Assembly (NCBI RefSeq): GCF_001913705.1
Contig: NZ_MKQD01000038.1
Location: 104,148 to 168,147, forward strand
Direction: 5' to 3'
DNA: 64,000 nucleotides
From: Thalassotalea sp. PP2-459
GTDB taxonomy: Bacteria; Pseudomonadota; Gammaproteobacteria; Enterobacterales; Alteromonadaceae
Made by a program: the position numbers and the translations under genes. Shown in pieces: positions 28,594-48,412 of the stretch (its first letter is position 1; the number at the start of each line of letters is the position of its first letter). A model generated the notes under the pieces. The model ran no database searches, had not been told where the DNA came from, and worked only from the letters and a program-made list of their open reading frames with translations.

Positions 28594-29226
28594 ATGAATA
28601 AAGAAAAACGTTTAGAAATACTTACACGTCTTCGCGATGATAACCCACAGCCAACAACTGAGCTGAACTTTACCACACCGTTTGAGTTATTGATTGCGGT
28701 ACTTCTTTCCGCACAAGCAACAGATGTTGGCGTAAATAAGGCCACCGCAAAGTTATACCCTGTTGCTAATACTCCACAAGCGATACTAGATTTAGGAATA
28801 GACGGTTTAAAGTCTTATATCAAGACTATCGGTTTATTTAATACTAAAGCAGAAAACACCTTGAAAACCTGTCGTATGCTAGTTGAACTTCATGGTGGAC
28901 AAGTACCTGAAAATCGTGCCGCGTTAGAAGCACTACCTGGTGTAGGCAGAAAAACGGCTAATGTTGTGTTAAACACAGCCTTTGGCTGGCCGACAATAGC
29001 TGTAGACACGCATATTTTTCGTGTTTCAAACCGCACTAAATTGGCCATGGGTAAAAACGTTGATCTAGTAGAGCAAAAGCTTCTAAAAGTGGTACCGGAA
29101 GAATTTAAAGTCGATGTGCATCACTGGTTAATTCTTCACGGCCGCTATACCTGTGTTGCACGTAAACCCAAATGCGGCTCTTGCATTATAGAAGATTTGT
29201 GTGAGTTTAAAGAGAAAACGGAATAA
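28594..29226 (+). CDS. nth: Endonuclease III (functional copy; target gene of the 3'-end array)
   Basis: Bifunctional DNA glycosylase/AP lyase of base excision repair removing oxidised pyrimidines. 210 aa and co-linear with the E. coli enzyme: helix-hairpin-helix LPGVGRKTANVVL with catalytic Lys120, catalytic Asp138 in IAVDTHIFRV, and the [4Fe-4S] cluster ligands Cys187, 194, 197 and 203 (C-x6-C-x2-C-x5-C). All key residues are intact. It closes the rsx operon. Its 3' portion from codon 130 onward is the sequence repeatedly found, displaced and decayed, through the next 19 kb. Confidence 0.98.
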   Translation: MNKEKRLEILTRLRDDNPQPTTELNFTTPFELLIAVLLSAQATDVGVNKATAKLYPVANTPQAILDLGIDGLKSYIKTIGLFNTKAENTLKTCRMLVELHGGQVPENRAALEALPGVGRKTANVVLNTAFGWPTIAVDTHIFRVSNRTKLAMGKNVDLVEQKLLKVVPEEFKVDVHHWLILHGRYTCVARKPKCGSCIIEDLCEFKEKTE

Positions 29227-29284
29227 CCTTATACTTAAATGACTGTGGATTTTGTTATTTTATTGATAGGTAATTTCAACAAGA

Positions 29285-29332
29285 CGTATATTATGTAGCG
29301 ACTTAAACTGAATTGTCGCTACATAATATACG
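29285..29332. terminator. Perfect 18-bp inverted repeat downstream of nth
   Basis: Arms CGTATATTATGTAGCGAC (29285-29302) and its exact complement (29315-29332) flank a 12-nt loop; TTTTTT follows about 6 nt later on the plus strand. It lies between convergent nth and the cupin gene and probably terminates nth. An attachment-site role cannot be excluded, since it marks the start of the accessory island. Confidence 0.6.
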
Positions 29333-29343
29333 ACGTTGCTTTT

Positions 29344-30165
29344 TTACATTACTTGATACTTCGCATTTGTTCGAATGTATATGGTGACTTCTTGGTCAGT
29401 CGGGTTAGTAATGTTGTGGCTAAAATCACCTGTTGACTCAATATAACTGCCTGCAGCTAAATTTTTTACATCACTTTTTTGATTAGATCGATATTTAATT
29501 TCGCCTGAAATTACTACCATCCTGAACTCACTAGCTTGGCTATAAATAGTGCCGTCATAGCCTACGGGTAATTTAACCATCGAGCCCCCTATTGTCGAAT
29601 TTCTATCCCAAAGAAAACTAGACTTCACCCCTTTTGCTTTGATGTCATGTAGGTCATGATTATTTAGCCAAACGATGTTGTCGCGATGCAGGTTTAAAGG
29701 ACGCTCGCCATTATCGAATTTTTCAGCTGATGGTTGAACAAGGTACGGGCCTGAATCTATTTCTAAATAAATTAAATTACTCTCTCCATTAGCCGCGGTG
29801 ATATGATCTTCGCCAGCAGGTTGTGTCCAGAAAGAGCCTGAAGGCAGCAACATTTTCTCGGCACTTGGATCATCATTATGCATTAAGCCATCAATTACTA
29901 CACCACGATAAGTAATGTTGTGAATGTGAGGAGGCGATTCAAAACCTTTTTTGAAGCGAACTAACATACCAGTAGCGGTATCTTTAGTTCGATCGCCCCA
30001 AAGATTGGCAGCACCGGGGCTAAGTTCGCCTCTCAATGGATTTAAGTAGCCCCAAGTAATATCGTCCGCAGAAACTACTTTTGAATTTATGTCTGAAGCA
30101 AACGTATTAAAAGATATTAATATTGCTGCTATCGAAAGAGTTGACGTCTTAATTGAAAATTTCAT
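29344..30165 (-). CDS. Secreted DUF4437-type cupin protein
   Basis: 273 aa from the ATG at 30165 (MKFSIKTST), which has GGGAAAG upstream; a start at 30177 is less likely. A Sec signal peptide ends near TFAS|DINSK, followed by two cupin-like beta-barrel halves. His residues in SPPHIHNITYRG, AGEDHITA and GDFSHNITNP are candidate metal ligands. This resembles DUF4437/ChrR-cupin proteins of unknown enzymatic role. It lies downstream of, and on the same strand as, the quinone-reductase-like gene, and together with the divergent LysR regulator makes the first module next to nth. Confidence 0.75.
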   Translation of the reverse strand: MKFSIKTSTLSIAAILISFNTFASDINSKVVSADDITWGYLNPLRGELSPGAANLWGDRTKDTATGMLVRFKKGFESPPHIHNITYRGVVIDGLMHNDDPSAEKMLLPSGSFWTQPAGEDHITAANGESNLIYLEIDSGPYLVQPSAEKFDNGERPLNLHRDNIVWLNNHDLHDIKAKGVKSSFLWDRNSTIGGSMVKLPVGYDGTIYSQASEFRMVVISGEIKYRSNQKSDVKNLAAGSYIESTGDFSHNITNPTDQEVTIYIRTNAKYQVM

Positions 30166-30230
30166 AATCTTTCCCATATTAATCTGTGCTTAAAAGCTAA
30201 AGGCAAGTACTTCAAAAATAACTAATCGCA

Positions 30231-47318: not shown

Positions 47319-47439
47319 GAGGGTTAAGTCATCCTAAAATAAAGCATATTATCTCTCTCACTAAAATTGTATCAGGTCATCATGAATGAGAATATAGTTA
47401 GTATTGCCCGTCCGGCTGTAGTGAAAACAGAGCATGAAA

Positions 47440-47465
47440 ACAGAGTAAGCTAGTGATTACTCTGT
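47440..47465 (-). terminator. Terminator of the 47528 gene
   Basis: ACAGAGTAA / TTACTCTGT, 9-bp perfect stem with an 8-nt loop, followed on the minus strand by TTTTCATG. It lies just downstream of the 47528 stop codon. Confidence 0.6.
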
Positions 47466-47527
47466 GCTTGTTGTCGTCATGAGCAATAAATACATACTGA
47501 TATTTAAATCCCTATTTACCAACACGT

Positions 47528-48172
47528 TTATTTATCGCTATATCCCCATGGCGCGCCAGGTGGCGTAATAGGTTTTGTTAAATCGAAATCCACTCTAAAT
47601 TCACGGCCTTCTCGAATCATGCGGTAGGTAAATTTTTCAGGATAAATAAACATTTGCCACGTATTACCATTTGATTGTGGTATGCCGTGTTTTACAAACA
47701 TCTCTTTTGAATACTGATCAGCTGGAAAAGATTGCACTCGCTCCCAGCCTGCATCCAAGGTATGGCCGCCATACATGGTAGATTTATCATAAGTACCATC
47801 TGCTTGACGATGATCATGCTTTAGAGAAATGCCAGAGCCCGTTTTAGTTAAAATCCACGTACGGGAGGCATCGTTCCCTACATGAAATGGAATTTGCAGT
47901 TGACGATCAGTACATTTACGAACATGCATCACTAATTTTTTATTGGAAAAACTACTTCCATTAGCATTGTCGACGGTAACTTTTCCTTGATAGGCTTTGC
48001 CACAATGTTTTTTTATATGTTCAAAATAAGCATCTTGGGTCGAAATAGAGACTTCTGGCGCAGGAAAAATAACAGATTTTCTTTCAGTAACATTTACGTC
48101 TGCCTTACCGCCCATACTTACGCTTAAGGCAGTTCCACCAACAATAAAAAACGATAAAATAGATGTTCTCAT
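47528..48172 (-). CDS. Secreted protein of unknown function
   Basis: 214 aa with an N-terminal signal sequence (hydrophobic core about 4-19). Three Cys in the mature part (KKHCGKAYQG, VRKCTDRQLQ), an aromatic-rich C-terminus and a repeated HDHRQADGTYDKST-type His/Asp segment. I do not recognise the family. It is monocistronic between two hairpins, between the ToxR-like regulator and the last nth relic, and belongs to the outermost module. Confidence 0.6.
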   Translation of the reverse strand: MRTSILSFFIVGGTALSVSMGGKADVNVTERKSVIFPAPEVSISTQDAYFEHIKKHCGKAYQGKVTVDNANGSSFSNKKLVMHVRKCTDRQLQIPFHVGNDASRTWILTKTGSGISLKHDHRQADGTYDKSTMYGGHTLDAGWERVQSFPADQYSKEMFVKHGIPQSNGNTWQMFIYPEKFTYRMIREGREFRVDFDLTKPITPPGAPWGYSDK

Positions 48173-48275
48173 GACAATTCTTTTCTCTAAATAATTGTTA
48201 ACTACTGATGTTATCAGCTATCTGATAACAGACACAACACGGAACTATCACCATAGATAAACATACCGACCCTGT

Positions 48276-48412
48276 ATCTAATTACACTAAATTCAATGTA
48301 GCTGTCTCCATGGGCTTATAATCCATAGCAAAATTCCTGCACAGCACGTAAACCTAATTGTAATGACTGTATTTATGAAGATCTTTGTGAGTACAAGGGC
48401 AAAATTAGCTAA
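48276..48412 (+). pseudogene. Displaced nth 3' end, copy 7 (most decayed)
   Basis: The reading ARKPNCNDCIYEDLCEYKGK (48344-48403) aligns column by column with the nth C-terminus ARKPKCGSCIIEDLCEFKEK; cluster cysteines are kept here. Upstream DNA (AAATTCAATGTAGCTGTC..CATGGGCTTAT) still matches the preceding EFKVDVHHWL region but with frameshifts. The 5' part to codon 130 is not recognisable. Farthest from nth. Confidence 0.8.

What the first reader, a model, noticed from the sequence alone, without database searches (positions are those of the whole stretch)
28981..48412. Serial array of displaced nth 3' ends dividing a 19-kb island into modules
After intact nth there are at least six further copies of its 3' portion, all on the same strand: 32343-32590, 35821-36065, 36546-36596, 40155-40399, 43275-43520 and 48276-48412. 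Between them lie discrete gene sets of about 3-5 kb and one 0.5-kb remnant. Elements that recombine into the 3' part of a gene and carry a replacement end leave exactly this trail, and recombinase-less relatives (cis-mobilizable elements) are known from other genes, for example Streptococcus fda. I know of no described system that uses nth as the target. No integrase, transposase or relaxase is present in any module.
Basis: partly seen in the sequence, partly recalled or inferred. Interest (0 to 1): 0.93.

Follow-up and report, generated by a model that had tools for sequence, protein, structure and literature searches.

The report
Stacked gene cassettes inside nth
Behind the DNA-repair gene nth this bacterium carries a row of small gene packets, each followed by a displaced copy of the gene's end; a serine recombinase found at the same site in related bacteria likely put them there one by one, which would make nth a landing dock for new genes.

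Summary
The long displaced nth 3' ends start at one point (nth nt ~386, codon 129/130), here and in many relatives: a strict junction pattern occurs in 45 of 246 family genomes. A second genome of the same species has three more cassettes exactly there, and its nth is 99.5% identical before and 84% after that point. Most displaced copies are preceded by one 16-bp motif (75 of 93 with a preserved start; background 8 of 10,237 windows), although the cargo differs. In six of seven related islands that carry a large serine recombinase, its gene lies next to the same motif and a displaced nth end. So the cassettes are best read as recombinase-less units using the half-site of an nth-specific serine recombinase, later lost or shuffled by homologous recombination. 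One cassette is 94.9% identical in another genus (rnf-nth region 70-73%). The window genome has no close copy of the recombinase, so mobilisation in trans is inferred. The kind is known (Dehalococcoides ssrA islands, SCC); target, half-site logic and tiny cassettes are new here.

The parts
28594..29226 (+). intact nth (endonuclease III), the anchor gene; its 3' part from about 28981 is probably element-derived
   Evidence: ORF; 5' 386 nt differ from the same-species genome G092 at 2 sites, 3' 247 nt at 40 sites
28981..28991 (+). junction core TTTGGCTGGCC (inferred attB centre)
   Evidence: window from 28981 aligns at 99.3% over 27 kb to G092 behind a 7.6-kb insertion; nth 5' part aligns before it
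29227..32327 (.). cargo 1: DUF4437 cupin (29344-30177 -), zinc-binding dehydrogenase (30231-31229 -), LysR regulator (31323-32225 +)
32328..32349 (+). right-end motif (inferred P half-site) of cassette 1, ATCTACTTTGATTACCCTTTGG, score 27.1
32345..32590 (+). displaced nth 3' end 1 (start of cassette 2)
32591..35803 (.). cargo 2: histidine kinase (32709-33974 -), response regulator (33993-34703 -), AXE1-like hydrolase (34694-35605 -)
35804..35825 (+). right-end motif of cassette 2, score 26.4
35821..36065 (+). displaced nth 3' end 2 (frame broken)
36546..36596 (+). tail-only nth remnant, possibly the scar of a lost cassette
   Evidence: 36557-36595, E 1e-4
36597..40137 (.). cargo 3: FG-GAP repeat protein (36684-37940 -), metallo-beta-lactamase-fold protein (37998-38915 -), LysR regulator (39160-40098 +)
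40138..40159 (+). right-end motif of cassette 3, degenerate, score 15.9
40155..40399 (+). displaced nth 3' end 3
40400..43257 (.). cargo 4: PF00144 beta-lactamase-family protein (40462-41871 -), weak RseC-like protein (41999-42595 -), ECF sigma factor (42597-43094 -); same cassette in another genus
   Evidence: 94.9% over 2838 nt with G197
43258..43279 (+). right-end motif of cassette 4, score 30.9
43275..43520 (+). displaced nth 3' end 4 (one stop)
43521..48275 (.). cargo 5: alpha/beta hydrolase (43838-44848 -), PF00144 protein (44890-46356 -), Trans_reg_C protein (46398-47318 -), unknown (47528-48172 -)
48276..48412 (+). distal nth remnant, no right-end motif
   Evidence: 48290-48404; score -4.2
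48442..54450 (.). distal block (S9 peptidase 48462-50525 -, unknown 50575-52407 -, ABC ATPase by eye 52417-53319 -, regulator by eye 53338-53781 -), perhaps an older inserted unit
   Evidence: not present before the flank shared with G001, which starts at 54451; 94-98% identical to G197, but that identity runs on into the flank at 93.5%

Best explanation
The region is a stack of five small gene cassettes, likely inserted one after another at a single site inside nth by a large serine recombinase acting in trans. Shown: the long displaced copies start at nth codon 129/130; most copies in the loci read are preceded by the same 16-bp motif; the motif also lies between the recombinase gene and a displaced nth end in related islands; a same-species genome has three further cassettes at exactly this point. 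Inferred: the motif is the recombinase's P half-site. In recombinase-bearing islands the other half (P') is its inverted repeat and lies in frame inside nth, where Nth reads LKDNEGRYF in place of PT; together they give a predicted 20-8-20 bp attP around GGCTGGCT. The cassettes carry only P; in place of P' they carry the ordinary nth sequence (B'), which resembles P'. Inserting [nth 3' end + cargo + P] would therefore leave nth intact and again a target, so cassettes stack with the newest next to nth. Also inferred: cassettes are lost and mixed by homologous recombination between the nth copies, and the distal block is an older unit.
For: One start point for the long copies. Motif ATCTACYTTNATTATC next to TTTGG with almost no conservation further out (77 of 84 copies used; 5 G092 orthologues and 2 misplaced rows dropped). 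75 of 93 copies with preserved start score above 12 versus 8 of 10,237 background windows, leave-one-locus-out; in loci not fetched by the motif 12 of 21 (my count). Recombinase arms kept out of training score 24.4, 24.4, 23.0, 17.3. Recombinase 55-75 bp (aligned start to motif) from motif plus displaced nth end in 5 of 5 named loci (Pseudoalteromonas sp. A601, P. distincta, Glaciecola pallidula, Shewanella olleyana, P. sp. EB27), and adjacent in G139. All 4 family genomes with the close recombinase have a P'-like arm in nth. Pfam Resolvase and zinc ribbon; model (pLDDT 82.2) best matches serine integrases, E 2.6e-14, TM 0.49. Same-species insertion: 7.6 kb, three cassettes; nth 2/386 versus 40/247 mismatches. 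Same cassette in another genus. Recombination mosaics.
Against: The close recombinase (55% identity or more) is in only 4 of 246 family genomes and not in G000, so no helper was seen beside these cassettes; array genomes G092, G130, G178 and G113 have distant serine recombinases (26-32%) whose target is unknown. Cassette junctions are P-B', not P-P'; ordinary serine integrases recombine attP with attB, and attL with attR only with a directionality factor (PMC5737554, abstract and passages), so P-B' with B-B' is untested. 18 of 93 copies lack the motif, among them a second right-end type. In G075 the recombinase gene lies about 9 kb from the displaced end. Of 8 cassette pairs compared, only window cassette 4 with G197 shows a clear identity step inside the left nth copy; in the others the unit boundary on that side is not resolved.
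Confidence: 0.67

Rival explanations
1. Homologous recombination alone moves the cassettes now: the nth 3' copies serve as shared adaptors, and cassettes are exchanged between strains by uptake of DNA and crossovers inside these copies. The site-specific step is ancient.
For: Mosaic nth copies: the window nth 3' part matches G092 copies 6689/8157 for its first ~65 nt and copy 12048 after it; in the cassette shared with G197 only the last ~36 nt of the left nth copy match at cargo level. The distal block is 94-98% identical to G197 and the identity runs on into the flank, which looks like exchange by homology. No close recombinase in the window genome.
Against: Does not explain why many unrelated cargos end in the same 16-bp motif at the same base, nor why that motif is the end of recombinase-bearing islands.
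Confidence: 0.22
2. The cassettes are decayed full islands (CIME-like): each once carried the recombinase and lost it by deletion.
For: 15 of 31 Dehalococcoides ssrA islands lack the integration module and were read as possible cis-mobilizable elements (PMC3146451, passages). Long nth genes with the P' arm but no recombinase seen nearby occur in several genomes.
Against: tblastn with two nth recombinases over the loci fetched by then hit only the recombinase islands themselves (E 1e-3). No sequence upstream of the motif is conserved among cassettes. Of loci with intact nth and displaced copies 33 have ordinary nth and 8, one of them a recombinase island, the long nth.
Confidence: 0.2
3. A tyrosine recombinase, for example the integron integrase common in these genomes, made the array.
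For: Integron integrases above the curated cut-off in 40 of 59 relatives.
Against: Genomes with displaced nth ends G019, G020, G024 and G005 have none above the cut-off; no listed Phage_integrase match lies within the nth regions of 20 genomes (weakest matches not listed); the recombinase found at the junction is a serine enzyme.
Confidence: 0.04
4. Tandem duplication or assembly artefact.
For: Repeated nth ends could confuse assembly.
Against: Copies are only 60-88% alike; the same array stands in G092, a single-contig genome, at 99.3% over 27 kb.
Confidence: 0.01

Closest known systems
Dehalococcoides ssrA-specific genomic islands (DsiB; PMC3146451, abstract and passages read)
   Same: Tandem islands behind one gene, displaced 3' ends as direct repeats, a conserved 15-bp motif upstream of each repeat, large serine recombinase beside the junction, 15 of 31 islands without it.
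   Different: Target is tmRNA with a 20-bp repeat; here a protein gene with a ~246-bp repeat. There the recombinase comes with a six-gene module; here no such module was looked for or noticed, the gene is rare, and most units have 1-3 genes. Whether the two recombinases are related was not compared.
Staphylococcal and enterococcal cassette chromosomes (SCC/ECC; PMC6243372 passages, PMC6222049 abstract and one section read)
   Same: Serine recombinase, insertion at the 3' end of a housekeeping gene, composite islands, units without ccr (pseudo-SCC), inverted repeats at attR.
   Different: Only the terminal bases of the target are involved, recombinases often in pairs, units of tens of kb, Firmicutes (these partly recalled).
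CIMEs and accretion at Streptococcus fda (PMC7563491, passages read)
   Same: Recombinase-less units at att sites, stacked at one gene.
   Different: Derived from ICE/IME by deletion; no conjugation or relaxase family among the window ORFs scanned.
Integrons (recalled)
   Same: Small cassettes, array grows at an anchor, recombinase in trans (analogy).
   Different: No intI at the array, attC not tested, cassettes carry own regulators and genes in mixed orientation.

Membership tests
Serine-recombinase tandem islands (ssrA-GI/SCC kind) | large serine recombinase gene at the junction | tested here: met
   met in related islands (adjacent in 6 of 7 loci); absent from the window itself
Serine-recombinase tandem islands (ssrA-GI/SCC kind) | target gene kept intact, displaced 3' ends in direct orientation | tested here: met
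   exception G075, where nth is cut
Serine-recombinase tandem islands (ssrA-GI/SCC kind) | element-specific motif at the junctions | tested here: met
   75 of 93 copies; 12 of 21 in loci not fetched by it; window 4 of 5
Serine-recombinase tandem islands (ssrA-GI/SCC kind) | excised circle with joined ends | not testable with these tools
   needs PCR
SCC proper | Ccr recombinase and rlmH target | tested here: not met
   target is nth; no Ccr-named family among the NCBIfam hits; direct comparison with Ccr not made
CIME | att sites at both ends, no recombinase or transfer genes | tested here: inconclusive
   no such genes; right end has the motif in 4 of 5 cassettes, left end is ordinary nth sequence
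CIME | derived by deletion from an ICE or IME | tested here: inconclusive
   no recombinase remnant found; no relaxase in window cargo
CIME | mobilised by an autonomous element in tandem | tested here: not met
   no such element in the window array, and no recombinase match at E 1e-30 in G000
Integron | intI next to attI | tested here: not met
   G000 intI is on contig C57, the array on C38
Integron | attC sites | not tested
   no attC model was run

The most novel reading that the evidence does not exclude
nth arrays are a serine-recombinase counterpart of the integron: each cassette carries one recombinase half-site and borrows the other from the reading frame of nth, so every insertion recreates both the anchor site and the cassette site, and one helper recombinase in trans can add, remove and reshuffle one-to-three-gene cassettes without a directionality factor.
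Probability: 0.3. Interest if true: 0.85.

Novelty: new variant of a known kind. Interest (0 to 1): 0.64.

Why it matters
It would give this bacterial family (which includes Pseudoalteromonas, Glaciecola and Lacimicrobium) and at least one Shewanella a common gene-capture site that my paper searches did not find described. A strict pattern finds it in 45 of 246 family genomes, and a related pattern in 7 genomes of two other families among 394 of the order, where the nth context was not checked. It offers a natural test of how serine recombinases treat half-P, half-B sites, shows a recombination half-site translated inside a DNA-repair enzyme, and supplies a recombinase group with a defined chromosomal target.

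Tried and rejected
tRNA target: none in the window. nth 3' end in phages and plasmids: 13 and 192 records, several annotated as nth, not read further. IMG/VR: one 84-nt nth tail at the edge of a phage contig, possibly chimeric, not followed; the exact junction pattern is absent; no recombinase relative in viral contigs at that tool's sensitivity or in plasmids at E 1e-60. Integron integrase: rejected. PF07508 as a marker: 48 of 246 genomes, but none of the four genomes with the nth recombinase is among them; association with arrays was not tested statistically. Hairpin/attC-like reading of the junction: dropped once the inverted repeat proved to be P/P' of the recombinase islands; no folding was run. 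Prediction that the whole left nth copy travels with the cargo: not met in the pair read base by base; recombination is the inferred reason. PDB by sequence: no match.

Distal block as a clean cassette: weakened, because its identity to G197 (94-98%) runs on at 93.5% into the flank shared with G001.

Coverage: 72 cassettes were delimited in 27 loci and 170 of their predicted proteins compared with window proteins; cargo of relatives was otherwise judged by eye from printed stretches, not by family search.
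Full report
Observation. nth at 28594-29226 is followed on the same strand by 3' copies at 32343-32589, 35821-36065, 40156-40399 and 43275-43503 (74.7-81.8% identity), a 39-nt tail at 36557-36595 and a weak remnant at 48290-48404. The long copies start at the same nth base and lose homology at the stop codon. The search of the own genome adds one weak remnant on contig C61. 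No tRNA gene is present. The 18 larger ORFs scanned carry regulators, hydrolases, beta-lactamase-family proteins, a two-component pair and an ECF sigma factor, and no recombinase.

The array is longer than reported. In the same-genus genome G001 the flank shared with the window (84%) begins at window 54451, about 40 bp behind an nth remnant. So the interval that differs between the two runs from nth to about 54450. Its distal part, 48442-54450, is 94-98% identical to contig C11 of G197, a genome of another genus, while the rnf-nth region of the two genomes is only 70-73% identical. That identity goes on at 93.5% into the flank up to 55449, so this part was probably exchanged together with flanking sequence and not as a clean cassette.

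Natural comparison. G092, a single-contig genome of the same species, is 99.7% identical upstream and, from window 28981 on, 99.3% identical over 27 kb. Between these parts it has 7.6 kb more, three cassettes of 2258, 1468 and 3891 bp. Its nth differs from the window's at 2 of the first 386 positions and at 40 of the last 247. This shows gain or loss exactly at codon 129/130 with exchange of the gene's end.

Wider distribution. nth searched in 59 relatives gave displaced 3' fragments behind nth in 13 genera including the own one (my count). A strict junction pattern (up to 2 mismatches) occurs in 45 of 246 family genomes, reversed-pattern control 0. A second pattern covering the outer part of the motif occurs in 60 of 246, but this count includes matches to the P' arm inside nth and some stray ones, and the reversed control hit 5 genomes. 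In 394 genomes of the order 17 match a longer pattern, 7 of them in two other families; their nth context was not checked.

The junction. Over 77 of 84 copies (5 orthologues and 2 misplaced rows dropped) the sequence before the displaced end is conserved only close to it, ATCTACYTTNATTATC, then TTTGGCTGG of nth. With a matrix trained without the locus being scored and without recombinase islands, 75 of 93 copies with a preserved start have it; 14 further copies are truncated; background 8 of 10,237 windows. Many of these loci had been fetched because of the inner half of the motif; in loci fetched only because of nth hits it is 12 of 21 (my count). In the window 4 of 5 copies with a preserved start have it.

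The recombinase. The outer pattern also hit the opposite strand inside nth of several genomes. There Nth reads FGWLKDNEGRYFIAV in place of FGWPTIAV. The inserted bases AAAAGATAATGAAGGTAGAT are the inverted repeat of the motif, with GGCTGGCT between. In G139 the displaced end behind such an nth is preceded by the motif and by the gene of a 578-residue serine recombinase; the same holds for G114, 64% identical. Four of 246 family genomes have a recombinase with 55-100% identity; nine more have distant ones at 26-42%, four of these in array genomes. A scan of named genomes found five loci; in all five the aligned gene start lies 55-75 bp from motif plus displaced nth end. In G075 the gene is about 9 kb away and nth is cut, with a complete divergent Nth gene directly behind it. 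The protein has Resolvase and zinc-ribbon domains. The homologue list drops from 49% and above (first 53 of the 120 rows listed, of 348 found) to 37% and below. A model (pLDDT 82.2) has serine integrases as best solved matches (E 2.6e-14, TM 0.49, large rmsd as expected for a flexible multi-domain protein).

How it likely works. P (motif) and P' (inserted bases) form a predicted 48-bp attP; ordinary nth is attB. Islands with the recombinase carry both P and P'. The small cassettes carry P and, instead of P', the ordinary nth half B', which has the same GTAGAT block four bases closer to the centre (my reading of the sequences). Loci with intact nth and displaced copies: 33 with ordinary nth, 8 with the long nth, one of them a recombinase island. 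If the recombinase accepts P-B', insertion leaves nth unchanged as a target and leaves P-B' at the far end, so insertions can repeat. This last step is inferred; a normal serine integrase would not be expected to reverse without a further factor (PMC5737554). Losses look like homologous recombination: the window's own nth end is a mosaic of two G092 copies, and in the cassette shared with G197 the identity jump lies about 36 nt before the nth stop. In the seven other cassette pairs no such clear step was seen.

Mobility. Of 72 delimited cassettes in 27 loci (984-13,880 bp, median 3,095 bp) 60 have at most three predicted genes of 85 residues or more. Cassette 4 of the window is 94.9% identical over its whole cargo to one in G197. 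Other cassettes share stretches of 67-96% identity between genomes, and two neighbours in G130 are duplicates at 81%. Among 170 cassette proteins, 12 match the window's first LysR regulator and 7 its beta-lactamase-family proteins, the window's own included. Two relatives carry IS66- or IS110-like insertions inside cassettes (by eye).

Known relatives of the idea. Dehalococcoides ssrA islands have the same architecture, with a 15-bp motif at each repeat and 15 of 31 islands lacking the integration module (PMC3146451, passages). SCC and ECC are further relatives (PMC6243372, passages; PMC6222049, abstract and one section), CIMEs a looser one (PMC7563491, passages). Searches for nth as a target found nothing relevant in the held library (listings). 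I therefore call this a new variant of a known kind, with a new target, a half-site inside a reading frame and unusually small cassettes.

Noticed in passing
G075:C1:4381382-4382499 (L109 1383-2500): nth is cut at the junction and a complete Nth of about 41% identity follows directly, as if the element brings a whole substitute gene; in G004, G009, G022, G026 and G034 the best match to this nth is likewise only a ~40% relative.
   Followed up: partly
L024 6679 and 9026, L083 7051, L072 4125, L074 5105, L030 1829, L029 3734, L079 7625: A second right-end type before displaced nth ends, about ATCWACNNCGAYAATRCCGTA then TTTGGCTGG, often with the long nth; no recombinase noticed next to it, IS91-like remnants beside the displaced end in G005 (L032, by eye).
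   Followed up: partly
G000:C61:13912-14028 (L039 from 8928): nth remnant away from nth, beside a sigma-factor-like/membrane protein pair like that of cassette 4 (by eye).
   Followed up: partly
L077 347-1851 (G123): Long nth with the P'-encoded residues but no displaced copy found, glyoxalase gene directly behind: looks like an emptied site.
   Followed up: no
L074, L080/L090-L092, L109-L111: Islands with the long nth or the recombinase carry defence-like cargo (DarT/DarG-like pair, restriction-like genes) or metal-efflux-like genes, by eye.
   Followed up: no
L040 8792-8875 (IMG/VR contig): A phage contig with terminase- and portal-like genes ends in 28 residues identical to this nth; possibly a chimeric contig.
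   Followed up: no
window 36546-36596: Tail-only nth remnant 0.5 kb behind copy 2, fits the scar of a cassette lost by recombination.
   Followed up: no
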